From Cryobacterium luteum (GTDB lineage Bacteria > Actinomycetota > Actinomycetes > Actinomycetales > Microbacteriaceae), in NCBI RefSeq assembly GCF_900110125.1, contig NZ_FOCN01000007.1, forward strand, positions 1-64,000: a DNA stretch of 64,000 nucleotides. Direction: 5' to 3'. The first letter of the stretch is position 1. Every line of letters starts with the position of its first letter. This document shows, in pieces, positions 338 through 14,212 of the stretch. Made by a program: the position numbers and the translations under genes. The notes under the pieces were generated by a model that saw only the letters and a program-made list of their open reading frames with translations, ran no database searches and was not told the origin of the DNA.

Positions 338-369
338 ATCCGCCGTTCCCCTTGCGGATTTGGATTCAA
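334..369. repeat. Inverted repeat at IS30 right boundary
   Basis: TTGAATCC (334-341) and GGATTCAA (362-369) form a perfect 8-bp inverted repeat immediately after the transposase. The right arm overlaps the stop codon (366-368) of the opposing abiE toxin gene. It may mark the IS end or act as a terminator; the partner IS terminus lies outside the window, so this cannot be settled. Confidence 0.4.
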
Positions 370-1247
370 GGTGTGGCCCAGCGCTGAGTTGACGAATCCC
401 ACGTGTCAACGTCGCCCACGGTGCCGGTGAAAACCGGATCTATGAAGTGGATCACGTCGGCCAGTTGGTTGTCGAATGATTCGAGGCAGATGTCGGTGAG
501 GGCGAGCTTGCGACGCCAGGCTGCCCATTTTGTTTGAGCGACCACTGGCCAGCCTGTCGTGGCGACCGAGACTGAGGTCAGCGGCACTTGGCGGAAATCG
601 GCCACGCGCTGAGCCGCACCGCGGAGCTCACTCGCGCTGAAGTCGTGGGTCAGCGAGAAATTTCGCAGGTCGACGATGTCGCGCCATCGAGTGCTTGTCG
701 TTCCACGGGTCAGCATCGTGACCGCCTTTTCTGCAACAACCATCACCAGCGGATAGCCGAGCATCTCAAATTCGCCACCGAGGATGCGCGGGACAGCCAC
801 CGAACGTGGGGCCAGCCAGATCGGGTCGCCGGTGCTGATGTCCAGATGGAACGACAGCGCGCTCGTGTAGACGTGTGCAAATATCTTGACTCGGAGCCCG
901 GAGTAGTCGTCGCCCTCGCGGATGGCGCGCACCTCGGTGCGTGCCGCGTCAATTGCCAGAGCATCGTCGACGGTGACGGCCGCAACAGCCTCCACGACAG
1001 CGAGCAAATGGGAGGCATCCACCTGAAAGTTGACTGCTTCCATATCGATGTCGCTCGTCGGACGTCGAAGGCGATACGCAGCCAGGAGCACGCCGCCCTT
1101 CAGAACGAAGTCATCCTTATAGATTGTCTGAGCGAGTCGGCTCAGGAAAGCCTCCATGGCGTAGAGGGTGACCGTCTCTGAGACTGCCCGGCCCGAAGCT
1201 CGGGCATACCGTGAGAGCGCGGCATAGAGTTGCGACGCCTGACTCAC
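366..1247 (-). CDS. abiEii: Nucleotidyltransferase toxin, AbiEii/AbiGii family (type IV TA)
   Basis: 293 residues. The N-terminal half carries the nucleotidyltransferase signature: FVLKGG near residues 47-52, followed by LLAAYRL and RPTSDIDM at about 62-69, where the two aspartates should bind metal. AbiEii toxins transfer nucleotides and stop growth, often giving abortive phage defence; the partner antitoxin is a DNA-binding repressor. The start overlaps the antitoxin stop by 4 nt (ATGA), so the genes are translationally coupled. The stop codon falls inside the inverted repeat next to the IS30 element, so the last few residues may have been replaced by the insertion. Length is normal for the family. 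Confidence 0.82.
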   Translation of the reverse strand: MSQASQLYAALSRYARASGRAVSETVTLYAMEAFLSRLAQTIYKDDFVLKGGVLLAAYRLRRPTSDIDMEAVNFQVDASHLLAVVEAVAAVTVDDALAIDAARTEVRAIREGDDYSGLRVKIFAHVYTSALSFHLDISTGDPIWLAPRSVAVPRILGGEFEMLGYPLVMVVAEKAVTMLTRGTTSTRWRDIVDLRNFSLTHDFSASELRGAAQRVADFRQVPLTSVSVATTGWPVVAQTKWAAWRRKLALTDICLESFDNQLADVIHFIDPVFTGTVGDVDTWDSSTQRWATP

Positions 1248-1828
1248 GAGAGCAACTCCAGGGCGTGACGCAACGGACCGCTCGCTCGGGGCAGCTGCCG
1301 GGCGATGTCCAGTAGTGCGGTCGGGTGAGACCCACGTCGGCGCAGCCAGTTCTTCAGCGCTTCCGGAGCGATCTCGTACCCCTCGGACCCGCGCAATCGA
1401 TAGGCATCGACGATGGAACGTTCCGGCGAATACAGGCCAATCGTCGCGTCGGAACCGTCGATGGCCAGCTCGGTGCGCTCGAGCGCGAACGTTGCGACCT
1501 CGAAATGATGCCAGGAAACCGGAGTATCAGTGCGGGGAATTCGAGCACCACGCGGAAGGGCAATATCGATTCGGGCGGGGATAACGTCAACGAGGCCGTG
1601 GTGCGCCAAGGCACTCGACAGGCACATTGTTGCGTCGGGCCTGCGGGTCACGATCTCAATTAGGTCCAAGTTGGCTGGCGGCAGATCGGCACGGCGGTAA
1701 AGCCCTCGGGCAATTCGGTCGATCGTTCCGTTCTCGCTGAGCCGACGCAGGTCTCGTGCCCCCACCCCCGCATCGGTGGCCATGGCGGTGCTGAAGGCGG
1801 CCGCAGGCAGGCTGTCAATCGAATGCAT
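1244..1828 (-). CDS. abiEi: AbiEi-family antitoxin / transcriptional repressor
   Basis: 194 residues. Residues about 19-47 form the winged-helix of AbiEi antitoxins (GVGARDLRRLSENGTIDRIARG), followed by LYRR and the C-terminal domain with CLSSALAHHGL and YSPERSIVDAYRLRG, which is typical of the family. It should neutralise the downstream nucleotidyltransferase without stable complex formation (type IV TA) and repress its own promoter through inverted repeats; a candidate operator is at 1843-1894. It is the first gene of a two-gene operon with a 4-nt overlap. Confidence 0.82.
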   Translation of the reverse strand: MHSIDSLPAAAFSTAMATDAGVGARDLRRLSENGTIDRIARGLYRRADLPPANLDLIEIVTRRPDATMCLSSALAHHGLVDVIPARIDIALPRGARIPRTDTPVSWHHFEVATFALERTELAIDGSDATIGLYSPERSIVDAYRLRGSEGYEIAPEALKNWLRRRGSHPTALLDIARQLPRASGPLRHALELLS

Positions 1829-2050: not shown

Positions 2051-2074
2051 GTTCGAATCCCTCCAGGGGCACCA
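2051..2074 (+). other. tRNA 3'-end duplication (candidate att site)
   Basis: GTTCGAATCC followed by CTCCAGGGGCACCA reads exactly as tRNA positions 53-76: TTCGAAT loop, 3' T-stem strand, seven acceptor bases, discriminator A and encoded CCA. No D-arm or anticodon arm precedes it and the 5' T-stem strand does not pair, so it is not a tRNA gene. This is the usual footprint of a tyrosine-integrase island inserted in a tRNA gene. The intact tRNA should lie to the left, beyond the window. Confidence 0.6.
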
Positions 2075-2140: not shown

Positions 2141-2296
2141 TCAAGAATCCCCGGGCAACTGCACCGCGATTGGAGCGGTCTCCGGATCGGAGACAGCCGC
2201 GGTGGACTCGTGCGTAAGGTGGTGCAGCTCACCGTAGAGGTGCAGGGCGGACTCTTGTTTCAAGCGCTCCCACGTGGCGTTCGATACGTGCTTCAC
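2141..2296 (-). CDS. Small hypothetical protein (51 aa)
   Basis: GTG start at 2296 with GGAG nine bases upstream; an in-frame stop lies just before the start, so it cannot be longer. The product begins VKHVSNATWERLKQESALH, continues with a Tyr/His-containing helix and ends in an Ala/Pro-rich tail. It contains an amphipathic helix and no membrane segment, and codon third positions are GC-rich as in neighbouring genes. No family is recognised. It could be a relic or chance frame in this sparse region. Confidence 0.3.
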   Translation of the reverse strand: MKHVSNATWERLKQESALHLYGELHHLTHESTAAVSDPETAPIAVQLPGDS

Positions 2297-2530
2297 AGTT
2301 CAGCGCTCCGTTCATTTCCCCCTGAGGGCGCACAGACAGCCTATCGTCGACCGGGACTGCAGATTCGTGGACCAGGTCGGTCGCTGCGTGATCGGCTGGT
2401 CTTGAGAACGACGGCGCAAGCCGCAGACGTGCCAGTGCCGTCGTGACGATAGTGAAATGAGAAGAAATCAACTAATCTGGAGGTGCCGTCCCGGACGCTG
2501 ACTGCACACGACTCAACTTGGGGGTTCGCG
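2297..2530. other. Intergenic, probable promoter region of the sigma-2 gene
   Basis: No convincing gene in either strand. The stretch at 2447-2480 (ATAGTGAAATGAGAAGAAAT and following) is locally AT-rich and would be a plausible place for the promoter of the gene starting at 2531; no clear -35/-10 pair is assigned. Confidence 0.25.
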
Positions 2531-2905
2531 ATGCGCGCACGTAGTCAACCAACCCGAGCAGACCGCCCCGCGGACGTCGAAGTAAACACCGAAATCGGCG
2601 TCAGGACCAGCGAAATCAACGCTTGGACAGCCGCCGTTGAAACCCTTCTGCAATGTTCCGCCCGCGGCAATCGAACGGCGTTTGCACAGCTCTACGACAT
2701 GATGGCCGTACCGGTTTACGCGGTCATCCTGACGCGGGCCACGAACGGCCCGCAGGCTGAACGGCTGCTGCTCGAAGTTTTCCTTGGCCTCTGGGAGCGT
2801 TGCCCCCTCTATCCGCAGGGCAGCCGGAGCGCCGTACCCTGGATCCTCGCCTATGCCGAACAAACGGCGGACTACGACGAACTTTTACCGCTGCGGCCAA
2901 TGTGA
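2531..2905 (+). CDS. Sigma-70 region 2-only protein (truncated ECF-like)
   Basis: 124 residues from ATG 2531, chosen because a G-rich ribosome site lies eight bases upstream (a GTG at 2483 is also possible). From about residue 38 the protein follows ECF sigma region 2: LLQCSARGNRTAFAQLYD, then EVFLGLWERCP and WILAYAEQ. It lines up with the SigK encoded at 58799 (LLGRVAHGDQAAFGELYD, EIFLEIWQ, WILTMAH). It stops right after region 2 and has no region 4, so it cannot read a -35 element the normal way. It may be a decayed gene, a core-polymerase competitor or part of a split sigma factor. Confidence 0.55.
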   Translation: MRARSQPTRADRPADVEVNTEIGVRTSEINAWTAAVETLLQCSARGNRTAFAQLYDMMAVPVYAVILTRATNGPQAERLLLEVFLGLWERCPLYPQGSRSAVPWILAYAEQTADYDELLPLRPM

Positions 2906-3087
2906 CCGCAGCGAACACGCCCGCGCACAGCAGCACGATCAGAGCAGCGGAGGCAGGAACGCGTTTCAGGAAGATTCCTCACGCAGATGTTACGCCCGGC
3001 GGCGGTGTTCACCAGCATGTAACCCGAGAGTTCTAGACTGGTCCTTTCGCGGCGTGTCAGGCGGCCACGACCTGAACGAGGAGTCGT

Positions 3088-6000
3088 GTGAGCGAGCACC
3101 AACACAGTCCAGTGGGCGCCCAGGCTGTACTCGCGGCGGGCCACCTGGCCAGGCCGGCCCGCACCCTGGCCGACATCCTTGCGGCAACCGCGGCGCAGCA
3201 TCCGGATGCCTTGGCCTTGGAAGATGCGGTCGGCACGATCAGCTACCGCGGCCTGCTGCGGCGCGTGCAGGCGCAGGCGACCGCACTGAGCCTGGCTGGC
3301 GTGCGCCGCGGCGATACCGTGGGCATTCGCATTCCGTCTGGCACTCGCGACCTGTACGTATCGATTCTGGCCACCGTGTTCGTCGGGGCCGCCTACGTTC
3401 CGGTTGACGCCGACGACCCGGAGGAACGCGCCCGGCTGGTCTTCTCCGAGGCACACGTGGTCGGCATTATCGGCGAGAACGGCATTTTCGCACTGCGTGA
3501 CGGGCTCGACGTGCAGTCTGTGCGCTCGCGCAGCATCGAACAATACGACGACCCGGCGCTCGTCTTTCCGCACGGCAACATTCCGACCCCCGACGACGAC
3601 GCCTGGGTCATCTTCACCTCCGGATCGACCGGCGTCCCTAAGGGCGTCGCCGTAACCCACCGCTCAGCGGCCGCGTTCGTCGACGCCGAGGCCGGCCTGT
3701 TTCTGCGCGCCGAACCGATCGGCACCGGCGACCGGGTGCTCGCCGGCCTGTCGGTGGCCTTCGATGCGAGCTGTGAAGAGATGTGGCTGGCCTGGCGCAA
3801 CGGAGCCTGCCTCGTGCCGGCCCCGCGTTCCCTCGTGCGCAGCGGCGCCGATCTCGGCCCCTGGCTGATCGCGCACGGCATCACCGTGGTCTCGACCGTG
3901 CCGACCCTCGCCGCCCTGTGGCCGCAAGAATCGCTTGAAGCGGTGCGCCTGCTGATCTTCGGCGGCGAGGCCTGCCCGCCAGAACTGGTCGCCCGCATCG
4001 CGACTCGCGGCCGCGAAGTATGGAACACCTACGGACCGACCGAAGCCACCGTGGTGGCCTGCGGCGCCCTCGTCGACGGCGTCGGCGAGATGCGTATCGG
4101 CCTGCCGCTGGACGGCTGGGACCTCGCCGTCGTCGACACGGCCGGCGAGCGGGTCGCCGAGGGAGCGACCGGCGAGCTTATCATCGGCGGCGTCGGCCTG
4201 GCCCGCTACCTCGATGCCGCCAAGGACGCCGAAAAATATGCGCCGCATCCGCAGCTCGGCTGGGACCGGGCCTACCGCAGCGGCGACCTCGTGCGGTTCG
4301 ACCGGGCCGGCCTGGTCTTCGCCGGCCGCGCCGACGACCAGGTGAAGCTCGGCGGCCGACGCATCGAGCTCGGTGAAGTGGATGCCGCTCTCAACACCCT
4401 TCCCGGGGTGGCCGGCGGCGCCGCCGTGGTGCAGACTACCTCGGCCGGCAACCAGATTCTGGTCGGCTACATTGCCCTCACCACCGCGCCATTCGACCGG
4501 AAGGCCGCGATCGCCCGGCTGCGCGAGGAGCTGCCGGCCGCGCTCGTTCCGTTGCTCGCCATCGTCGACGCCCTGCCGACTCGAACCTCTGGCAAAGTCG
4601 ACCGGGCGGCGCTGCCGTGGCCGCTTCCCGCGTCAGCGCCCGGTGCAGGCGACGACGCCGCGCCGCTGTCACCGACGGCGGCGTGGCTGGCCGAGGCGTG
4701 GGCATCCATTTTGGGGGTGCCGGTCACCGGGCCCGACGACGACTTCTTCGCCCAGGGCGGCGGCTCGCTCTCAGCGGCGCAGTTCGTGTCGGCCGTGCGC
4801 GCCCGCCACCCGGAAACGACCGTCGCCGACCTCTACGACCACCCGCGCATCGGGTCGCTCGCCGAGGAACTCGACGCCCGCACCCCCGTCACACCGCCCG
4901 TGGTGCGACAGGTGCTGCCGACCCCGGCTCGCAGCCAGTTCGCACAGACCGTGCTCGGCATTCCGCTGCACGTGCTGAGCGGCGCGCGCTGGCTGGTGTA
5001 TCTCGCCATTGCCAACAACCTGCTGAGCCTGGCCGGCGCGAGCTTCGCCCCGACGCTGTCGTGGTGGTGGGTAGCGCTTGGGTTTGCCCTGTTCGTGACG
5101 CCGCCCGGCAAGATGCTCATCGCCGTGATCGCGGCCCGGCTGCTGCTGCACGACGTGCTTCCCGGAAACTACCCGCGCGGCGGATCCGTGCACCTGCGGT
5201 TGTGGCTGGCCGAGCAGATCGCGCTGCTCGTCGACGCCGCGAGCCTGGCCGGCGCGCCCTGGATCAGCTACTACGCCAGAGCCCTCGGCGCCCAGATCGG
5301 CCCCGACGTCGACCTGCACTCGCTGCCGCCGGTGACCGGCCTGCTCACCATCGGCGCCCAGGCTTCGATCGAACCGGAGGTCGACCTGGCCGGTCACTGG
5401 ATCGACGGTGATGTGCTGCGCATCGGTCACCTGCACGTTGGAGCGGATGCCCGTATCGGCTCCCGCAGCACCCTGCTCGGCGGCACCCACGTGGGCAACG
5501 GCGCTGAGGTTGAACCCGGTGCCGCTGTCTCCTCGCGCGTGCCGGCGGGGGAGCGGTGGGCCGGTTCCCCGGCGCGCCGGGTGGGTTCAGCCCGTCGCCC
5601 ATGGCCGGCCGAACGGCCTGCACGGGCCAGCCGCTGGCTCGGCGCTTTCGCCGCTGGCTCGGTCGCGATGACGGCCATCCCCACGATCGCCCTCGTGCTC
5701 GGCGCGGTGATCGTCGGCGCGGTCGTCGGCGATGCCGACAGCCTCGGGGTCGCCGTGTTGCGCGCCGCCCTGATCATGCCGGTCGCCGTGATCGCCGGCG
5801 GGCTCGCTTACGCCTTGCTCGTGATCGCTTTCGTGCGCGCCCTCAGCGTGGGTCTGCGCGAGGGCTTCTACCCGGTGCGCAGCCGCATCGGCTGGCAGGT
5901 GTGGATGACCGAACGCATTCTCGACGGCGCACGCACGGTGCTGTTTCCGGTGTACGCGAGCCTGCTCACGCCCACCTGGCTGCGGTTGCTCGGCGCCAAG

Positions 6001-7029
6001 GTCGGTGCCGACGTGGAGGCGTCGACCGTGCTGCTGCTGCCCTCGCTCACCACTATCGCGCCCGCCGCGTTTCTTGCCGATGACACCATGGTCGCCTGCT
6101 ACGAACTCGGCGGCGGCTGGATGCACATCGGCCCGGCCAAGGTGGGCCGCCGGGCTTTTCTCGGCAACAGCGGCATGGCCGGACCCGGCCGCACCGTTCC
6201 CCGCAACGGTCTCGTCGCGGTGCTCTCGTCGACGCCGCGCAAAGCGAAGCGCGGGTCGAGCTGGCTCGGCAACCCGCCCGCGCGACTGCGCCGCAAAGAA
6301 ACGGATGCCGACGACTCCCGCACGTTCCACCCTCCCGTGCGTCTGAAAGTAGCGCGGTCGTTGTGGGAGCTGCTGCGCATCGTGGCCGGCTTCACCACCG
6401 CCTGGATCGCGCTGCTCGTGCTCGCGGTGCTTGACCTGCTCTGGTTGCAGCTCGGCCTCGGCGCAGCGATCGCGCTGTCGGGCGTGGTCATGCTCGCTGC
6501 CGGCGCGGTCGCTGCCGGGGTCACGACGGTGGTCAAGTGGACGCTGGTCGGGCGCATCGACGCGTCGGAGCATCCGCTCTGGTCGTCGTTCATCTGGCGC
6601 AACGAGGTCTCGGACAGTTTCGTCGAAATGGTAGCCCGCCCCTGGTTCGCCGAGAAAGCATCGGGCACGCCGGCGCTCGCCGTCTGGCTGCGCACCCTCG
6701 GCGCCAGGGTGGGAAAGGGCGTCTGGTGCGAAACGTACTGGCTGCCCGAAGCCGACCTGGTGCGGCTCGGCGCAGGCAGCACGGTGAACCGCGGCTGCGT
6801 GGTGCAAACGCACCTGTTTCACGATCGCATCATGCAGCTCGACGCGGTCGAGCTCGCCGAGGGAGCGACGCTCGGGCCGAACGGCGTCATTCTGCCGGCG
6901 GCGTCGATCGATGCGGGAGCGACCGTCGGCCCGGGCTCGCTTGTGATGCGCGGCGAACGGGTACCGACCGGGTCGCTCTGGTCGGGTAACCCGATCACGC
7001 CGTGGCACCAGCCGCCGTGGACCCGCTAG
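3088..7029 (+). CDS. Pls/PosA-family non-ribosomal peptide synthetase (predicted lysine homopolymer synthetase)
   Basis: 1313 residues, one A-T module plus a large membrane C-terminus, as in epsilon-poly-L-lysine synthetase (about 1.3 kb residues in known members). A domain: IFTSGSTGVPKG at 175-186, NTYGPTE at 313-319, YRSGDL, and the A10 Lys in TSGKVD at 503. Carrier domain: GGGSL with the phosphopantetheine serine at 560. After about 620 come several hydrophobic segments alternating with hexapeptide-repeat stretches, the three tandem C-terminal domains that replace condensation and thioesterase domains in this family. By-eye extraction of pocket residues gives D226, A227, E230, then S, I, G, T, V, V and K503, close to the lysine code I know for bacitracin synthetase (DAESIG...). 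GTG start with GAGGAG at 3078. An M1 peptidase follows after 18 nt and a PPTase is nearby. Confidence 0.9.
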   Translation: MSEHQHSPVGAQAVLAAGHLARPARTLADILAATAAQHPDALALEDAVGTISYRGLLRRVQAQATALSLAGVRRGDTVGIRIPSGTRDLYVSILATVFVGAAYVPVDADDPEERARLVFSEAHVVGIIGENGIFALRDGLDVQSVRSRSIEQYDDPALVFPHGNIPTPDDDAWVIFTSGSTGVPKGVAVTHRSAAAFVDAEAGLFLRAEPIGTGDRVLAGLSVAFDASCEEMWLAWRNGACLVPAPRSLVRSGADLGPWLIAHGITVVSTVPTLAALWPQESLEAVRLLIFGGEACPPELVARIATRGREVWNTYGPTEATVVACGALVDGVGEMRIGLPLDGWDLAVVDTAGERVAEGATGELIIGGVGLARYLDAAKDAEKYAPHPQLGWDRAYRSGDLVRFDRAGLVFAGRADDQVKLGGRRIELGEVDAALNTLPGVAGGAAVVQTTSAGNQILVGYIALTTAPFDRKAAIARLREELPAALVPLLAIVDALPTRTSGKVDRAALPWPLPASAPGAGDDAAPLSPTAAWLAEAWASILGVPVTGPDDDFFAQGGGSLSAAQFVSAVRARHPETTVADLYDHPRIGSLAEELDARTPVTPPVVRQVLPTPARSQFAQTVLGIPLHVLSGARWLVYLAIANNLLSLAGASFAPTLSWWWVALGFALFVTPPGKMLIAVIAARLLLHDVLPGNYPRGGSVHLRLWLAEQIALLVDAASLAGAPWISYYARALGAQIGPDVDLHSLPPVTGLLTIGAQASIEPEVDLAGHWIDGDVLRIGHLHVGADARIGSRSTLLGGTHVGNGAEVEPGAAVSSRVPAGERWAGSPARRVGSARRPWPAERPARASRWLGAFAAGSVAMTAIPTIALVLGAVIVGAVVGDADSLGVAVLRAALIMPVAVIAGGLAYALLVIAFVRALSVGLREGFYPVRSRIGWQVWMTERILDGARTVLFPVYASLLTPTWLRLLGAKVGADVEASTVLLLPSLTTIAPAAFLADDTMVACYELGGGWMHIGPAKVGRRAFLGNSGMAGPGRTVPRNGLVAVLSSTPRKAKRGSSWLGNPPARLRRKETDADDSRTFHPPVRLKVARSLWELLRIVAGFTTAWIALLVLAVLDLLWLQLGLGAAIALSGVVMLAAGAVAAGVTTVVKWTLVGRIDASEHPLWSSFIWRNEVSDSFVEMVARPWFAEKASGTPALAVWLRTLGARVGKGVWCETYWLPEADLVRLGAGSTVNRGCVVQTHLFHDRIMQLDAVELAEGATLGPNGVILPAASIDAGATVGPGSLVMRGERVPTGSLWSGNPITPWHQPPWTR

Positions 7030-7047
7030 GCGTGGAATAGTAAAGCA

Positions 7048-8376
7048 ATGGCCCAGACTGTGCAGACGACCTTCGGTTCGGCCAGCGCCGGCGACCCCTA
7101 CATTCCCACCGGTGGAAACGGTGGCTACCTCGCCGAACACTACGACCTGAGCCTGGACTATCGGGTGGCCACCAACCGGTTGAACGCGACCGCGACCATC
7201 ACCGCGCGGGCCTTGATGCGTCTCGACCGGTTCAGCCTTGATTTCGCCGGGCTGAGCATGGAGAAGGTGACGGTGAACGGCGCGCGCCCCAGCAAGGTCA
7301 CCCACAACGCCCGCAAACTCGTGATTTCGCTCGGCATTCCGGTGGAAGCCGGGGCGACGTTCAAGGTGGTGGTGCGCTATCGCGGGGCGCCGCATCCGGT
7401 GCATAGTGCCTGGGGCGACGTCGGCTGGGAAGAACTCGACGACGGCGTGCTCGTCTCCGGGCAGCCGTGCGGTGCGGCCTCGTGGTTTCCGTGTAACGAT
7501 CACCCCAGCAACAAAGCCAGCTACCGCATCACGATCGCCTGCGAATCGGGGTACACCGTGGTGTCGAACGGGGTGTTGTCGAACCGATCGAGCCGGTCGG
7601 GCCGCACCAGTTGGACCTTCGACGTGCGCGAGCCGATGGCGACCTACCTCGCCACCGTGCTGATCGGTCGCTACCGCCGCCGCGACCTGGCCGCCGTTCC
7701 CGTGGCCCACAGCCTGTACTTTCCGGCCCGGCTGGCGACCCGCGTCGGCACCGACTTCGCCCGCCTGACCGAGATGATCACGTTTTTCGCCGACCGGTTC
7801 GGGCCGTATCCGTTCCCCTCGTACTCGGTCGTGGTCACCGACGACGAGCTGGAGATTCCGCTCGAGGCGCACGGCCTCGCTGTGTTCGGCAGCAACCACG
7901 TGGACGGCAACCACGGCGAAGACCGGCTGATCGCCCACGAACTGGCCCATCAGTGGTACGGCAACAGCCTCACCGTGGCCCGGTGGCAGGATATCTGGCT
8001 GCAGGAGGGCTTCGCCTGCTACGCCGAATGGCTATGGGAGGAGCAGCGCGGCGGGCGCACCGTCGACCAGCTCGCCGCCCTGCACCGGGGCAAGATCCAG
8101 GCGCTGCCCCGTGACATCGTGGTCGGCGACCCCGGCCCGCACGACCTCTTCGACGACCGGGTCTACAAGCGCGGTGCGCTCGCCCTGCACGCTATCCGCC
8201 GCTCGCTCGGTGACGAGGCGTTTTTCGCTGCCTTGCGCGCCTACACCGCTGCCCGGCGGCACGGGCACGTGTCGACCGACGACTTCGTGCAGTTCTTCGC
8301 CGAACACACCGGCAGCCGCGCAATCGGTGGTTTCGTCGCCCGCTGGGTGCAGCAGAGCGCGCTGCCGAGCCTCTGA
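7048..8376 (+). CDS. M1-family zinc metallopeptidase
   Basis: 442 residues. The M1 zinc site is complete: HELAH at 297-301 and Glu320 exactly 18 residues later in DIWLQEGFACYAEW. The N-terminal beta domain shows ASWFPCNDHPSNKASY. The usual GAMEN substrate-binding motif is replaced by IPLEAHGLAVFG, so the N-terminus-recognition site is atypical. No signal peptide is visible; the protein is probably cytoplasmic. It starts 18 nt after the synthetase, so they are likely cotranscribed. Peptidases of this type are known to degrade poly-lysine in producers; a role in trimming or self-protection here is inference. Confidence 0.85.
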   Translation: MAQTVQTTFGSASAGDPYIPTGGNGGYLAEHYDLSLDYRVATNRLNATATITARALMRLDRFSLDFAGLSMEKVTVNGARPSKVTHNARKLVISLGIPVEAGATFKVVVRYRGAPHPVHSAWGDVGWEELDDGVLVSGQPCGAASWFPCNDHPSNKASYRITIACESGYTVVSNGVLSNRSSRSGRTSWTFDVREPMATYLATVLIGRYRRRDLAAVPVAHSLYFPARLATRVGTDFARLTEMITFFADRFGPYPFPSYSVVVTDDELEIPLEAHGLAVFGSNHVDGNHGEDRLIAHELAHQWYGNSLTVARWQDIWLQEGFACYAEWLWEEQRGGRTVDQLAALHRGKIQALPRDIVVGDPGPHDLFDDRVYKRGALALHAIRRSLGDEAFFAALRAYTAARRHGHVSTDDFVQFFAEHTGSRAIGGFVARWVQQSALPSL

Positions 8377-8543
8377 GCGCTCAGCACGAGAGGTGCGCTG
8401 CGCCCGGGGCGCTCTGGGGTGCCGAGATGCGCTACGCGGGAGTTGGCGACTTGGGATAGCCTCTGGCCTCCACAAAACCCGGGACTTGACACCTCACACG
8501 CAGCGGCGCACCTCCCGCGCGGCGTGAAACGGATGGCCCGGCT
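8377..8543. other. Intergenic between convergent genes
   Basis: 167 bp between the M1 peptidase stop and the phosphopantetheinyl transferase stop. GC-rich with short inverted segments around 8381-8420 but no clean stem with a T-run; no gene seen. Confidence 0.3.
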
Positions 8544-9266
8544 TCACGGTTCGCGGCGCAGCTTGACCGTGGGCGCCGTCGAGCTGAGTACGGCCACCGT
8601 GCCGACCAGGCCGGGGCCCGCATCGAAGTTCGCCATGTACACCTGGCCGAGATCGAGGGTCGCACCCGGCCAGCCCAGCAGAACGGATGCTCCGGCCCCA
8701 ACCCCGGCTCCGCCCCCAACCCTTGTTTCGGCTCCGCCCCCAGTCCCCACTCCGGCGTCGGCTCCGGCTTCAGTCCCAACCCCGGCTCCGGAGCCTGTCG
8801 CACCCGAGTCGAACCCCACGGTCAGCTCCCGCGGATCCACCGTCAACCCCTCACCCGAGAGTTTGAGCAGCGCTTCCTTCGCTGTCCAATGGATCGCGCG
8901 GGCGTGGTCGCGGTTGGCGGCGGGCAACGACGCCAGGGTTGCGCGTTCGGCGTCGTTGAACGCGACGTCGTCGAACCCGGCGCGGCTGACCGCGCTGACC
9001 GTCTCAATGTCGACGCCGATCGGCCCGACCAGCGACACCGCCACGACCGCTATTGGGCCGGCGCGGCTCAGGCTCACGAAGGTGCCCGGCGGCGTCAGCA
9101 CCCGGGGTCGGCCGTGCGGGCCGCCGCATCGTTCACAGCGTTGTTCGATGGTGATCGTGGCGAGGTCAACGGCGCAGGCCCGGGCGACCGCGGCGGCGAG
9201 CCGTAGGCGGTCGCTCTGGGGGAGCGGCGCTCGCGGTGCCAGACCGAGGAAGACATCCGTTTGCAT
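8544..9266 (-). CDS. 4'-phosphopantetheinyl transferase (Sfp type)
   Basis: About 240 residues. Signature motifs are GPIGVDIE (Mg-binding Asp and Glu) and WTAKEALLKLSGEG, the two halves of the Sfp active site. It transfers phosphopantetheine from CoA to a carrier-domain serine; the obvious client is Ser560 of the synthetase encoded at 3088. ATG 9266 is preferred, with AAGGG just upstream; GTG 9269 is the alternative. Odd feature: behind the KEALLK motif the protein carries a Gly/Ala-rich low-complexity insert of about 40 residues (GSGAGVG, GTEAGADAG, GGGAGVGAG) encoded by an irregular tandem repeat. The gene converges on the peptidase and diverges from corA. Confidence 0.85.
   Translation of the reverse strand: MQTDVFLGLAPRAPLPQSDRLRLAAAVARACAVDLATITIEQRCERCGGPHGRPRVLTPPGTFVSLSRAGPIAVVAVSLVGPIGVDIETVSAVSRAGFDDVAFNDAERATLASLPAANRDHARAIHWTAKEALLKLSGEGLTVDPRELTVGFDSGATGSGAGVGTEAGADAGVGTGGGAETRVGGGAGVGAGASVLLGWPGATLDLGQVYMANFDAGPGLVGTVAVLSSTAPTVKLRREP
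8691..8800. repeat. Degenerate 18-bp tandem repeat inside the PPTase gene
   Basis: About six irregular copies of a CCGGCTCCGCCCCCAACC-like unit on the plus strand, in frame with the PPTase on the minus strand, producing the Gly-Ala-Val-rich insert. Such repeats expand by slippage, so length may differ between strains. Confidence 0.6.
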
Positions 9267-9330
9267 CACCCTTGAACGTTACCGGGCACCCCGCGCGGGT
9301 GACACACTGGAATATCGAGTAAGGAGAGCC

Positions 9331-10347
9331 ATGGCGCTGGTGGACAACGCGGTCTATGTAGACGGGCACCGGGTGGCGACGCCGCCGAGCCTCGACGAGA
9401 CCTTCGAAGTGATGAAACAGAAGAAGGGCTTCGGCTGGATCGGCCTGTACCGGCCGAGCGAGGAGGAAGTGCGGGCGGTCGCCACCGAATTCAGCCTGCA
9501 CCATTTGGCCGTGGAAGACGCGCTGGCGGGTCACCAGAGGTCGAAAATCGAGCGGTACGGCGACATTCTGTTTGTGGTGCTGCGCCCGGCCCGTTATATG
9601 GACGACGAGGAACGCGTCGAGTTCGGTGAGCTCCACGTGTTCGTCGGTCCGGATTTCGTCGTGACCATTCGCCATGCAGAATCGCCTAACCTCGCGCTGG
9701 TGCGGGAGCGCATGGAACAGACGCCGCACCTGCTCGCCCTCGGCCCGGAAGCCGTGCTGTACGCGATTCTCGACCAGGTCGTCGACGAGTACGGACCGGT
9801 CGTCGCCGGCCTGGAGAACGACATCGACGAAATCGAAGACCAGTTGTTCGACGGCGACCCGGAGGTCTCCCGTCGCATCTACGCCCTGTCGCGCGAGGTG
9901 ATCGAGTTTCAGCGGGCTACGCAGCCGCTCGTGAACATGTTCGAGGCCATGCAGCGCGGCTTCGACAAGTACAACGTGGATCTGGAACTGCACCGGCACC
10001 TGCGTGACGTGCTCGACCACACCCTGCGGGTCGTGGAGCGAGGCGACGCGTTTCGGCAGCTGCTGCAGAACGCCCTCACCGTGCACAGCACCCTGGTCGG
10101 CCAGCGGCAGAACGACGAGATGCGGCACCTGTCGGAGACCAGCCTGGCGCAGAGTGAAGAGGTCAAGAAGATCTCAAGCTGGGCCGCCATTCTGTTCGCT
10201 CCGACGCTGGTCGGCACCATTTACGGCATGAATTTTGACCACATGCCCGAGCTGCACTGGACCCTGGGCTACCCCTTTGCCCTCAGCCTGATGATCGCGA
10301 TGGGTGTCAGCCTGTACGTGGTGTTCAAACGAAGGGACTGGCTGTGA
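9331..10347 (+). CDS. corA: CorA-family magnesium/cobalt transport protein
   Basis: 338 residues from ATG 9331, with AAGGAG at 9321-9326; the frame is open far upstream but that part lies under the PPTase gene and is not coding. The long cytoplasmic helical domain (EDQLFDGDPEVSRRIYALSR region) is followed by two membrane helices. The selectivity motif YGMNFDHMPEL sits between them, and the C-terminus is a basic KRRDWL as in most CorA proteins. Divalent cation channel in the inner membrane, working as a pentamer. Stands alone between the synthetase locus and the helicase-like gene. Confidence 0.92.
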   Translation: MALVDNAVYVDGHRVATPPSLDETFEVMKQKKGFGWIGLYRPSEEEVRAVATEFSLHHLAVEDALAGHQRSKIERYGDILFVVLRPARYMDDEERVEFGELHVFVGPDFVVTIRHAESPNLALVRERMEQTPHLLALGPEAVLYAILDQVVDEYGPVVAGLENDIDEIEDQLFDGDPEVSRRIYALSREVIEFQRATQPLVNMFEAMQRGFDKYNVDLELHRHLRDVLDHTLRVVERGDAFRQLLQNALTVHSTLVGQRQNDEMRHLSETSLAQSEEVKKISSWAAILFAPTLVGTIYGMNFDHMPELHWTLGYPFALSLMIAMGVSLYVVFKRRDWL

Positions 10348-10426: not shown

Positions 10427-13400
10427 GTGTGGCACCTCGATAGAAAACAAGACGACGACGACGTGCTTTCCAAGTACCTGGACGTCACTCCCGTCGACCC
10501 GCAAAACGTGACCAGTCCCCACAACCTCAGTCTGGGCGACCCGACGTTTACCGCCGGCAACATCGCCGAGCCGGTCTGGCAGCGCTGGCGCGACGAACTC
10601 GTCGCGCTCGGCGGTCGCTCCCCGCTGCTGCACTTCACCGACGAAGCCCGCACCCGCATCGAGCTCAGCGCCACCCATCCCGGCGGCCTGCCGCAGTTCA
10701 TCATCGGCAAGACCACGTTGCTGTCCAACCTCATTCGCGACGAACTCGCTCTGCGCAACGCCCGCCTGGCGGCGAACGAGATCACCCAGAAGGGCATCGA
10801 ACTGCGCTCCATGCGCGGCATCGAATCGGTCAACCTCGCCATCGGCCTCGCCGAGTGGCGCTATCAAGACGTTGACTACAGCGCCCCGGTGCTGCTGCGC
10901 CCCCTCGCGATCCGTCGCTACGGCCGCGACTACGAACTCAAGCTCAAGGGCCAGCCGTTCCTCAACCCGGAACTTGCCCGCGCCCTGAAAGACCAGTTTC
11001 AGATCGTGCTCGACGCCGATGCCTTCGTGGCGCTCGCCGTCACCAACGGCGCGTTCAAGCCGCAGCCGGTTATCGACCGCCTGCGTGGCCTGACCTCGCA
11101 CCTGCCGTGGTTCAACGTCGTTCCCCGCCTCGTCGTCTCGTCGTTCGCCTCCTGCGGCCCGGCGCTCGCCGCCGACGCGTCGAACCTCGACCACCCGGTG
11201 CTGGACGCCGTCGCCGGCAACATGACCGCCAAGCGCAACATCGAGACCGCCTACAACCCCGTGGTTCCGATCGGGCAGGACGCCCGCCCACCGGCCACCG
11301 ACACGCTGCTCGGCGATGCTGACCCCGAACAGGAGAACGTCGTCGCGCAGATCGCGGCAGGCAACTCCCTCGTCGTGAAGACGCTGCCCGGAACCGGCGG
11401 CACCCAGACCATCGTCAACGCGATCGGCTCGCTCGTCGCCCAGCACAAGCGGGTGCTCGTGGTGAGCGCCCGCCGATCAAGCCTGGACGGCATCCACGGC
11501 CGGCTCGTGCAGGTGGGCCTGCCCGGCATCGCCGTGACCCCGCGCACCCTGCGCCGCGACCTGATCCAGTCGATCACCCGCAACGAGAAAGCGGCCCAGC
11601 CGCGGGTCGGCGACGTCGACGACGCCCTCGTGCGGCTGCGCAAGGTGCTGCTCGACTACCGGTCTGCGCTCACCCGCCGCGACTCGGCGCTCGGAGTCTC
11701 GGTGCTCGACGCGCTGGGCGAACTCGCCCGGCTCGCCCAGCTGCCCGAGCCGCCGTCGACGACCGCCCGCCTCGACCGGCACGCCCTCGAACTGCTCGCT
11801 CATTCCCGTTCGGCCGCCGCCAACACCCTGATCAAGGCCGCCATTCTCGGCGAATTCCGCTACGGCCCCGGCGACTCGCCCTGGTATGGCGCATCGTTCA
11901 CCTCCACAGCGGATGCCTCCAACTCGCACCAGCTCGCCAAACGCATCAACCAGATCGAACTGCCGAGGCTGCTCGAACGCGCCAACGGCCTGATCGGCCA
12001 GACCCGGCTGCGCCCGTTCGAGACGATCAATGAACTCGGCATCTACCTGCGTCTGCTGCTGGACATTCGCGAAACCCTCGACAAATTCCAGCCCGGCGTC
12101 TACGACCGGTCACTCACCGAGCTGATCGCTGCCACCTCGTCGCGCCGCGAATCGTCCGAGATGAGCTCGGCCAGTCGCCGGAGGCTGCGGAAGCTCGCCG
12201 AGGAATATCAGCGCCCCGGCGTGCGCGTCACCGACATGAACGAGAGCCTGCGCCGCATTCAGAGCCAGCGCACGCTCTGGCAGCGCTACGCGGCCGCCGG
12301 CGTTACTCCCGAGGTGCCGGTCGGCATCAACGATGTGCACGTCGCCTTCCAGCGCGTCTCGGAAGACCTCGGCCTGCTCGACATCCCGCTCGGCACCACC
12401 GGAACGCCGCGCGTGCTGGCTGGGCGCCAGATCGGCGAGCTCGCCTCGATGATCTCCGGCCTCGCCGCCGAGAGCGAGGTGCTCGCCAACCTGCACGAGC
12501 GCACCGCGCTGCTGGCGACGCTGCGCGAGCACAACCTCGACCCGCTCATGACCGACCTGTCCCAGCGCCACGTGTCGGAGGAGAACGTCGCCGCCGAGCT
12601 CGAACTCGCCTGGTGGCAGTCTGTGCTCGAAATCATGCTCGCGAGCGACCGGGCCCTGCTGGGCGCCAACACCCAGGTACTGGACCGCCTCGAGGCCGAT
12701 TTCAAACTCGTTGACGAGGCGCACGCATCCGCTAGCGGCAAGCTGCTGGCCTGGCTGCTCGCTGAAACCTGGAAGATCGGTGTCGTAGATTTTCCCGAGG
12801 AAGCCGACCAGCTGCGCCGCCTGCTGCGGGCCGACCGGGCCACCCCGGCCCGGCTCAACGAGGTTGCCCCGCACCTGGGCCGTGTGCTCGCGCCGGTCTG
12901 GCTCGCTTCGCCCTACGAAATCGCCGGGATCAGCGACCAGATCACCTTCGACACCGTGCTGCTCGTCGACGCCGGCGCGACCACCCTCGCCGAAAACGTC
13001 GGCGCGATTCGTCGCGGCCGTCAGATCGTGGCGTTCGGCGATCCGGTCACCCAGACCCCGTCAGCGTTCGAAACCGGAATCGCCGCCTCAGGGGAGGCCG
13101 CGGTTGCGCCCGATGTGTCGGTCGATGCCCTGCACGCTGACTCCGCTCTGGCCCGACTGGGCGAGCTGCTGCCCACGCTCACGCTCACCCGCAGCTACCG
13201 GGCCGGCGGCGAAGACCTCGCCGAACTCGTCAATCATCGTTTCTACGGCGGACGCATCGACTCCCTGCCCTGGGCCGGAAGCTTTCTTGGCCATGGCAGC
13301 CTCACCATCAACTATGTGGCCGGCGGTCGCGGCATGCCCGACGCCGACAGCGGTGCCATCGAGAGCGTTGACGCTGAGGTCGTCAAGGTCGTCGACCTCG

Positions 13401-14212
13401 TGCTCGACCACGCCTCCAAACGCCCGCGGGAATCGCTCATGGTGATCACCGCGAGCACCCGGCACGCCGTGCGCGTGCAGCAGGCCGTGCTCGTCGCGTT
13501 CGCCAAGCGCACAGACCTCTCGGACTTCATCCTGAAAGACCGCAGCGAACCGTTCACCGTGCTCACCCTCGAGCAGGCCGTGGCGCAGAGCCGCGACCGG
13601 GTCATCTTCTCGATCGGCTACGGCCGCACCCCGCACGGACGCCTGCTGTCGAACTTCGGTTCACTCGGCGAGCCGGGCGGCGAACGCCTGCTCGCGATCG
13701 GCATGACCCGGGCCCGACGTGCCCTCGACATCGTCTCCTGCTTTCGTCCAGCCGACATCGACGAGGACCGCCAGCGTCACGGCATCCTCGCGCTCTCGCA
13801 GGTGCTCAGCGAGACCGAAGCTCGCCGTGACGAAGTGCAGGTTCCCGACGCGAGCGAGGCAATGCTGGTCGACCTTGGTGGTCGCCTCGAAAAGCTCGGC
13901 CTCACCGTGCGCCTCGGCCACCGCGGCAAGCTCGCCCTCGCCGCCTCCTACGGCACCCGCGCCATCGTCGTCGAAACGGATGCCGTCATCAATCGTGCGA
14001 GCCTGCGCGAGTCGCTGCGACTGCGGCCCGAAGTGCTGCGCCGTTTGGGCTGGCACTACCTGCGCGTGCACAGCTTCGAACTGTTCAGCAACCCCGACGC
14101 CGTCGCGGCACGCGTGGCCGCGATCGCCGGCGTTCCCCAAGCGCATGCCGCCCCCCGCGCCTTCGCCAGCGGTGACGCTCCCACGATCGCCCCGAAACGA
14201 CCCGGAGCGTGA
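10427..14212 (+). CDS. SF1 helicase-like / DUF4011-type ATPase with C-terminal endonuclease-like domain
   Basis: 1261 residues, GTG start. The N-terminal third resembles DUF4011-type leader domains. The P-loop region reads LPGTGGTQT at 320-328, lacking the lysine of GxGKT. The motif II region reads VLLVDAGATT, lacking the DE pair. Later motifs are recognisable: LTRSYRAGGEDLAELVN and GMTRARRALDIV (motif VI-like). The last 80 residues (RGKLALAASYGTRAIVVETD, then RLGWHYLRVHSFELF) resemble the VSR-type nuclease domain appended to many actinobacterial DUF4011 proteins, but the first catalytic Asp is not evident. It may be a structural or pseudo-enzyme. The downstream small gene overlaps by 4 nt. 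Confidence 0.7.
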   Translation: MWHLDRKQDDDDVLSKYLDVTPVDPQNVTSPHNLSLGDPTFTAGNIAEPVWQRWRDELVALGGRSPLLHFTDEARTRIELSATHPGGLPQFIIGKTTLLSNLIRDELALRNARLAANEITQKGIELRSMRGIESVNLAIGLAEWRYQDVDYSAPVLLRPLAIRRYGRDYELKLKGQPFLNPELARALKDQFQIVLDADAFVALAVTNGAFKPQPVIDRLRGLTSHLPWFNVVPRLVVSSFASCGPALAADASNLDHPVLDAVAGNMTAKRNIETAYNPVVPIGQDARPPATDTLLGDADPEQENVVAQIAAGNSLVVKTLPGTGGTQTIVNAIGSLVAQHKRVLVVSARRSSLDGIHGRLVQVGLPGIAVTPRTLRRDLIQSITRNEKAAQPRVGDVDDALVRLRKVLLDYRSALTRRDSALGVSVLDALGELARLAQLPEPPSTTARLDRHALELLAHSRSAAANTLIKAAILGEFRYGPGDSPWYGASFTSTADASNSHQLAKRINQIELPRLLERANGLIGQTRLRPFETINELGIYLRLLLDIRETLDKFQPGVYDRSLTELIAATSSRRESSEMSSASRRRLRKLAEEYQRPGVRVTDMNESLRRIQSQRTLWQRYAAAGVTPEVPVGINDVHVAFQRVSEDLGLLDIPLGTTGTPRVLAGRQIGELASMISGLAAESEVLANLHERTALLATLREHNLDPLMTDLSQRHVSEENVAAELELAWWQSVLEIMLASDRALLGANTQVLDRLEADFKLVDEAHASASGKLLAWLLAETWKIGVVDFPEEADQLRRLLRADRATPARLNEVAPHLGRVLAPVWLASPYEIAGISDQITFDTVLLVDAGATTLAENVGAIRRGRQIVAFGDPVTQTPSAFETGIAASGEAAVAPDVSVDALHADSALARLGELLPTLTLTRSYRAGGEDLAELVNHRFYGGRIDSLPWAGSFLGHGSLTINYVAGGRGMPDADSGAIESVDAEVVKVVDLVLDHASKRPRESLMVITASTRHAVRVQQAVLVAFAKRTDLSDFILKDRSEPFTVLTLEQAVAQSRDRVIFSIGYGRTPHGRLLSNFGSLGEPGGERLLAIGMTRARRALDIVSCFRPADIDEDRQRHGILALSQVLSETEARRDEVQVPDASEAMLVDLGGRLEKLGLTVRLGHRGKLALAASYGTRAIVVETDAVINRASLRESLRLRPEVLRRLGWHYLRVHSFELFSNPDAVAARVAAIAGVPQAHAAPRAFASGDAPTIAPKRPGA

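What the first reader, a model, noticed from the sequence alone, without database searches (positions are those of the whole stretch)
3088..9266. Candidate cationic homopolymer (poly-lysine-type) biosynthesis locus in a non-Streptomyces actinobacterium
A 1313-residue A-T-membrane synthetase of the Pls/PosA family, an M1 peptidase 18 nt behind it and a Sfp-type PPTase form a compact set that could make, prime and degrade an isopeptide homopolymer. By-eye pocket residues D-A-E-S-I-G-T-V-V-K resemble the bacitracin lysine code I know, so the monomer may be lysine or a close relative. Family and architecture are seen; substrate and product are inference.
Basis: partly seen in the sequence, partly recalled or inferred. 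Interest (0 to 1): 0.85.

Follow-up and report, generated by a model that had tools for sequence, protein, structure and literature searches.

The report
Cryobacterium poly-lysine synthetase gene cluster
This looks like an ordinary epsilon-poly-lysine synthetase gene with its companion degrading enzyme, a pair already known from other actinobacteria; the one fresh point is that in this family of bacteria a third gene, the likely enzyme that switches the synthetase on, nearly always travels with it.

Summary
The window (genus Cryobacterium, inferred from protein matches) encodes a complete Pls-type synthetase (3088-7029), an M1 peptidase 18 nt downstream (7048-8376) and a convergent Sfp-type PPTase (8544-9269, minus strand). 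The A domain's best solved relative is the epsilon-poly-L-lysine synthase domain 7WEW (603 bits; PosA 204). The pocket DAESIGTVVK is identical in 81 of 81 sequences compared, and 7WEW reads the same by eye. The terminal domain scores 725-727 bits against TIGR02353 (cut-off 423.1) and models as three repeats. Lysine and epsilon-PL are thus well supported; the product is untested. Novelty is low: Jiang et al. 2021 (PMC8117764) showed a pls-peptidase operon in Corynebacterium variabile, proved its product by heterologous expression, and found pls homologs in eight coryneform genera including Microbacterium. Not found in my literature searches: the PPTase link. In 199 genomes of the window's family, 80 of 80 with a TIGR02353 gene also carry a PPTase of the linked type (10 of 119 without do), within 12 kb in 74 of 80. 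In the window's genome Pls has the only carrier domain detected in a large protein. The PPTase is probably Pls's dedicated activator. Verdict: new member of a known kind.

The parts
3088..7029 (+). pls: A-T-terminal-domain epsilon-poly-L-lysine synthetase (predicted), 1313 aa
3088..4632 (+). adenylation domain (residues 1-515), code DAESIGTVVK
   Evidence: matches 7WEW over residues 11-515 at 603 bits; code in 81 of 81 sequences
4684..4869 (+). thiolation (carrier) domain, GGGS serine present
   Evidence: PF00550; sequence
4942..6996 (+). TIGR02353 terminal domain: three repeats of a helix pair plus a region read as left-handed beta-helix
   Evidence: 727.3 bits; AlphaFold2 model of residues 603-1313, mean pLDDT 81.9, pTM 0.86; single-repeat matches to hexapeptide acyltransferases
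7048..8376 (+). M1 metallopeptidase, 442 aa, probable PldII-type poly-lysine-degrading enzyme
   Evidence: PF01433 and PF17900; HExxH + E + Y + amine-binding-type E in 81 of 81; downstream of pls in 80 of 80 loci
8544..9269 (-). Sfp-type phosphopantetheinyl transferase, convergent with pls-M1
   Evidence: PF01648; co-occurrence with TIGR02353 in 80 of 80 family genomes

Best explanation
The locus makes epsilon-poly-L-lysine. The A domain activates L-lysine as its adenylate. The PPTase adds phosphopantetheine to the T domain, which then holds lysine as a thioester. The membrane-embedded terminal domain (three beta-helix units on six membrane helices) repeatedly joins the epsilon-amine of one lysine to the alpha-carboxyl of the next and lets the chain out of the cell. 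The M1 peptidase, probably co-transcribed, trims or destroys polymer, protecting the cell or limiting accumulation. Shown here: the domains, pocket identity, catalytic residues, conserved linkage and PPTase co-occurrence. Inferred from studied relatives: lysine use, isopeptide chemistry, export and degradation. Inferred only from my genomics: that this PPTase is dedicated to Pls.
For: A domain best hit is 7WEW 'Epsilon-poly-L-lysine synthase', 602.8 bits. The code is identical in the window and all 80 relatives aligned; the 7WEW letters, read by eye at the same columns, give the same ten. TIGR02353 724.7-727.3 bits over a 423.1 cut-off. No condensation or thioesterase domain in the Pfam scan at E 0.001. 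M1 downstream of pls in 80 of 80 loci. PPTase in 80 of 80 TIGR02353-bearing and 10 of 119 TIGR02353-lacking family genomes. The own genome has only two PF00550 matches, Pls and a 96-aa frame. Published: C. variabile Pls, with the same architecture and an adjacent peptidase, makes epsilon-PL in S. coelicolor (PMC8117764, parts 1 and 2 of 4 read).
Against: No product, transcript or enzyme assay. C. variabile itself, and C. glutamicum expressing its gene, gave no detectable epsilon-PL (PMC8117764), so a sound gene may be silent. The pocket may admit shorter diamino acids: in PosA, M218A raises lysine use nearly ten-fold but barely reduces ornithine use (PMC10522769). The M1 protein shows no evident signal peptide and no convincing membrane helix by hydropathy, whereas S. 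albulus PldII is reported outside the membrane (PMC9223678). The PPTase evolves faster than its neighbours, is absent from the fetched flank of the close relative Lacisediminihabitans (L006), lies more than 700 kb from pls in two family genomes, and occurs without pls in ten, two of which have a single PF00550 match.
Confidence: 0.88

Rival explanations
1. A Pls-family enzyme that polymerises a related diamino acid (ornithine, diaminobutyrate, diaminopropionate or beta-lysine) rather than lysine.
For: The family makes several such polymers, and pocket position 2 alone shifts preference (PMC10522769, passages).
Against: All ten code letters agree with the S. albulus Pls A domain 7WEW. PosA has DMEHNGTVSK and the epsilon-poly-beta-lysine enzyme DGESISVVNK. 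A-domain score 603 bits to Pls against 204 to PosA 8G95. [quoted passage not shown]
Confidence: 0.07
2. A silent or decayed locus: the genes remain but no polymer is made in this strain.
For: C. variabile, with a gene that works when moved, gave no epsilon-PL and no detectable Pls protein (PMC8117764). No sigma-70 promoter-like site was found in 2200-9500.
Against: Purifying selection on pls and M1 (dN/dS 0.08-0.12), intact catalytic motifs, and all three genes kept in the three same-genus loci examined. The promoter scan covers only a sigma-70 consensus and is weak evidence.
Confidence: 0.1
3. The M1 peptidase and PPTase are neighbours by chance and serve general housekeeping.
For: M1 aminopeptidases are common; the PPTase is on the other strand, so not in the pls operon; it is missing near pls in 45 of 80 relative loci.
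Against: M1 downstream in 80 of 80 loci. PPTase presence tracks TIGR02353 in 80 of 80 family genomes and sits within 12 kb in 74 of 80. In 17 of 20 TIGR02353-bearing genomes tested the only PF00550 matches are the Pls frame and one other.
Confidence: 0.04

Closest known systems
Pls, epsilon-poly-L-lysine synthetase of Streptomyces albulus (A domain 7WEW)
   Same: A-T-terminal-domain architecture; same ten pocket letters; degrading peptidase gene directly downstream
   Different: 18-nt gap between pls and the peptidase gene instead of the 4-bp overlap reported for S. albulus (PMC4361855). A PPTase is linked here; whether one is linked in S. albulus was not checked
Pls of Corynebacterium variabile (PMC8117764)
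   Same: non-Streptomyces actinobacterium, same domains, pls-peptidase operon; pockets of the coryneform proteins reported there as identical or highly similar to Pls
   Different: product proven there by heterologous expression, not here; the main text of that paper has no occurrence of 'phosphopantetheinyl'
[quoted passage not shown] albulus
   Same: aminopeptidase-type enzyme encoded directly behind pls
   Different: PldII is reported outside the membrane (PMC9223678); no export signal was seen here; sequences not compared directly
PosA, delta-poly-L-ornithine synthetase of Acinetobacter baumannii (8G95-8G98)
   Same: same NCBIfam family (TIGR02353, 'Pls/PosA family'); conserved Asp and Glu in the pocket
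   Different: Met at pocket position 2 instead of Ala; single-gene operon (PMC10522769); much lower score to this A domain

Membership tests
Pls (epsilon-poly-L-lysine synthetase) | single A and T domain without condensation or thioesterase domain | tested here: met
   Pfam finds only AMP-binding, PP-binding and Hexapep at E 0.001
Pls (epsilon-poly-L-lysine synthetase) | lysine-type pocket as in S. albulus Pls | tested here: met
   DAESIGTVVK in 81 of 81; 7WEW alignment read by eye. The mapping of the ten positions is recalled from PheA; spacing agrees within one residue with the PosA positions printed in PMC10522769. No specificity predictor was run
Pls (epsilon-poly-L-lysine synthetase) | three tandem terminal domains with six membrane helices | tested here: met
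   TIGR02353 over cut-off; model shows three repeats of a long helix pair plus strand-rich region. The plain hydropathy scan picked out only about four of the six helices and two false ones
Pls (epsilon-poly-L-lysine synthetase) | degrading peptidase gene in operon with pls | tested here: met
   18 nt downstream, same strand; same order in 80 of 80 loci, within 150 nt in 75. Co-transcription itself not tested
Pls (epsilon-poly-L-lysine synthetase) | makes epsilon-linked poly-L-lysine | not testable with these tools
   needs expression and mass spectrometry
PldII | zinc aminopeptidase catalytic residues | tested here: met
   HExxH, third zinc Glu, Tyr and amine-binding-type Glu in 81 of 81; residue roles recalled from the M1 family
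PldII | located outside the cell membrane | tested here: inconclusive
   no evident signal peptide and one weak hydrophobic stretch by hydropathy; no dedicated predictor available
PldII | sequence orthology to S. albulus PldII | not tested
   the S. albulus sequence was not among my fetched records
PosA | Met at pocket position 2, ornithine preference | tested here: not met
   Ala227 at that position; substrate preference itself not testable
Sfp-type PPTase | ACPS-superfamily domain with the GxDxE and WxxKEAxxK motifs | tested here: met
   PF01648; G85, D87, E89, W128, E132, A133, K136 invariant and K131 nearly so among 15 PPTases aligned, 14 of the 35 linked ones plus the window; motif names recalled

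The most novel reading that the evidence does not exclude
In Microbacteriaceae and related Micrococcales, epsilon-poly-lysine synthesis is a three-gene module (pls, pldII-like M1 peptidase, dedicated Sfp-type PPTase). The PPTase usually has Pls as its only large-enzyme client and is gained and lost with it, which would explain how lineages with no other carrier-domain megaenzyme can use Pls, and why pls moved alone into a host lacking a suitable PPTase might stay inactive.
Probability: 0.7. Interest if true: 0.35.

Novelty: new member of a known kind. Interest (0 to 1): 0.22.

Why it matters
It adds Cryobacterium, and two in five of the genomes sampled in its family (80 of 199), to the predicted makers of a commercial food preservative. 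It also suggests a testable reason, not found in my literature searches, why heterologous Pls expression may need a matching PPTase. The basic discovery, Pls outside Streptomyces, is already published.

Tried and rejected
PosA/ornithine reading: rejected on pocket and score. Promoter and terminator scan of 2200-9500: nothing above shuffles (0 promoters against mean 0.3; 2 terminators, both minus strand, against mean 3.5). Upstream sigma-region-2-like ORF (2483-2905) as a pls regulator: found in 2 of 3 same-genus loci (L088, L090) and in none of the 80 relative loci at E 1e-5 (best chance hit E 1.5), whose upstream flanks are 7 kb at most. It lies about 1 kb from pls in L088 with another ORF between, so no link to pls is claimed. 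Sequence search of the PDB with the terminal domain gave only weak hexapeptide-fold matches (best E 1.5e-5), and Foldseek only partial matches (TMq at most 0.16 in the 50 rows shown of 390), so no solved whole-domain structure was found. The protein search with the M1 gave Cryobacterium names for the closest named entries but no PldII label among the 120 listed of 7854 (names are cut short there). Literature: 'Cryobacterium' with 'poly-lysine' gave 0 papers; 'polylysine', 'Microbacteriaceae', 'nonribosomal' together gave 0; any two of 'phosphopantetheinyl transferase', 'poly-L-lysine synthetase', 'Pls' gave 70, of which 15 were listed, none about a pls-linked PPTase by title or abstract start; the one S. 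albulus paper listed there with the PPTase term uses it once, for a genome-wide enrichment (PMC4361855). The other papers in the listings were seen as listings only. In the co-occurrence survey, the first look scored only 14 candidates in most genomes, so PPTase absences are less sure than presences.

Full report
What is there. One search gives three intact reading frames: pls 3088-7029 (+, 1313 aa), an M1 peptidase 7048-8376 (+, 442 aa) with an 18-nt gap, and a PPTase 8544-9269 (-, 241 aa) facing them. Pfam and NCBIfam assign AMP-binding, PP-binding and Hexapep plus TIGR02353 'Pls/PosA family non-ribosomal peptide synthetase' (724.7 bits against 423.1), Peptidase_M1 with M1_N, and ACPS. The own-genome search puts the TIGR02353 match at 727.3 bits; two other matches in that genome are weak (50 and 28 bits) and below the cut-off. 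The genome is most likely Cryobacterium: the closest named M1 relatives are Cryobacterium proteins, one of them on a contig of the same length (517842) as that of the same-genus genome G193, and the best named Pls locus is Cryobacterium sp. 1639 at 75% identity.

Substrate. The best solved relative is the A domain of epsilon-poly-L-lysine synthase, 7WEW (602.8 bits). PosA, deposited as 8G95-8G98 (PMC10522769), scores 204.4 bits at best. The ten pocket residues are D226 A227 E230 S269 I290 G292 T314 V322 V323 K503, and the same ten letters appear in all 81 sequences aligned, the window plus 80 relatives. The 80 are close relatives (59-75% identity), so the match shows conservation within this clade rather than independent proof. 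Reading the 7WEW row at those columns by eye gives the same letters. The position mapping is recalled from PheA; its spacing agrees within one residue with the PosA positions in PMC10522769. That paper assigns alanine at position 2 to lysine-using enzymes (passages). No specificity predictor was available.

Polymerising domain. A 28-sequence alignment (A2; 28 of the 80 references prepared) gave a model of residues 603-1313 with mean pLDDT 81.9 and pTM 0.86. It shows three repeats of a long helix pair followed by a strand-rich region, which I read as left-handed beta-helices. Sequence and fold searches match parts of it to serine and galactoside acetyltransferases and gamma-carbonic anhydrases. 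This agrees with the six helices and three left-handed beta-helices modelled for PosA (PMC10522769). Parts of the first strand-rich region have pLDDT under 50, and hydropathy alone found only about four of the six helices.

Peptidase. An M1 gene lies downstream of pls on the same strand in 80 of 80 relative loci: within 150 nt in 75, and at 598-2194 nt in L034, L044, L055, L061 and L062. Those loci are the 80 best of 592 confirmed relatives, themselves a capped list, so the survey covers close relatives only. HExxH, the third zinc ligand, the catalytic Tyr and the amine-binding-type Glu (mostly in an IPxEAxG-like motif rather than GxMEN) are present in 81 of 81. In S. albulus the gene behind pls, pldII, encodes the major epsilon-PL-degrading enzyme (PMC9223678, PMC4361855, passages). 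I did not compare the two sequences.

PPTase. A PPTase-like ORF lies in the fetched flank of 35 of 80 loci: downstream in 34 (33 on the minus strand; L073 on the plus strand by its match) and upstream in one, L049. Sorting the record titles by order from recalled taxonomy, that is 35 of 40 Micrococcales and 0 of 40 others. The five Micrococcales without one are L006, L032, L043, L057 and L065; L032's contig ends soon after the M1 gene, and several loci of other orders also have short downstream flanks. In 199 genomes of the window's family, its own included, 80 carry a TIGR02353 gene over the cut-off (one, G076, in two pieces; pockets not read) and 90 carry a PPTase matching an alignment of pls-linked PPTases: 80 of 80 with and 10 of 119 without (Fisher p 6e-45; genomes are related, so this overstates independence). 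In 74 of 80 the two lie within 12 kb; in four they are on different contigs, and in two more than 700 kb apart. Because the query was built from pls-linked PPTases, I repeated the count with the general Pfam ACPS model: two or more matches in 62 of 80 with and 15 of 119 without (p 6e-21), weaker but in the same direction. The window's genome has two PF00550 carriers, Pls and one in a 96-aa frame, and two ACPS-family matches. Of 20 pls-bearing genomes tested, 17 have exactly two PF00550 matches, one being the Pls frame; the others have 3, 3 and 7. Of the 10 genomes with PPTase but no pls, 8 have more than one carrier and 2 have one; of 10 with neither, 7 have one and 3 have two. This fits a PPTase dedicated to Pls and kept elsewhere mainly where another carrier protein exists.

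Selection. Against two same-genus loci, dN/dS is 0.081 and 0.095 for pls, 0.100 and 0.121 for M1, and 0.317 and 0.249 for the PPTase.

What is known. Jiang et al. 2021 (PMC8117764; [quoted passage not shown] variabile, proved epsilon-PL by expression in S. [quoted passage not shown] The present locus is the same kind of thing in Cryobacterium. PPTase linkage is not mentioned in the text I read and was not found by the searches; most subscription papers are not in that library.

Verdict. Observation confirmed and interpretation supported; ordinary by kind, with one modest new genomic inference.

Noticed in passing
window 2051-2074; L092 1450-1524 and 1752-2849: The 24-nt 3' end of tRNA-Arg(CCT) occurs twice in the genome: as a bare fragment here and in a whole tRNA gene on contig C54 beside a tyrosine-recombinase-like ORF (recombinase by eye). 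Same-genus L088 has an intact tRNA-Arg upstream of pls. This may be the far end of a tRNA-inserted island, about 1 kb upstream of pls, with pls outside it; the two contigs were not shown to join.
   Followed up: partly
window 366-1828 (-): AbiEi/AbiEii pair (type IV toxin-antitoxin, listed as phage defence in PADLOC) on the presumed island side of the tRNA fragment.
   Followed up: partly
window 2483-2905 (+): A 140-aa ORF that matches only the N-terminal half of ECF sigma factor models (SigK 8e-11), also present as a short ORF in same-genus L088 and L090 (131 and 132 aa) but not found in L089 or the 80 other relative loci; dN/dS 0.13-0.36. A free-standing sigma2-like protein or a relic.
   Followed up: partly
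L088 13494-14321 and L090 3808-4382: A reading frame with a possible secreted-phosphoesterase look (by eye), whole in L088 and apparently split in L090, lies between the sigma-like ORF and pls; nearly 800 bp of this interval in L088 have no counterpart in the window.
   Followed up: no
window 8696-8786: Imperfect 24/30-bp tandem repeats inside the PPTase gene encode a Gly/Ala-rich insert longer than anything at that place in the 14 other PPTases aligned.
   Followed up: partly
window 10427-14212 (+): 1261-aa protein matching PADLOC candidate PDC-S37 (303 bits) and Hhe (118 bits); found beside pls in 2 of 80 relative loci (L004 Cryobacterium, L006 Lacisediminihabitans) and in all three same-genus loci.
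   Followed up: no
G071, G134, G187: Three same-family genomes, all of one genus (g72), carry two nearly full-length TIGR02353 matches each, with the PPTase within 12 kb of the lower-scoring copy only; their pockets were not read.
   Followed up: no
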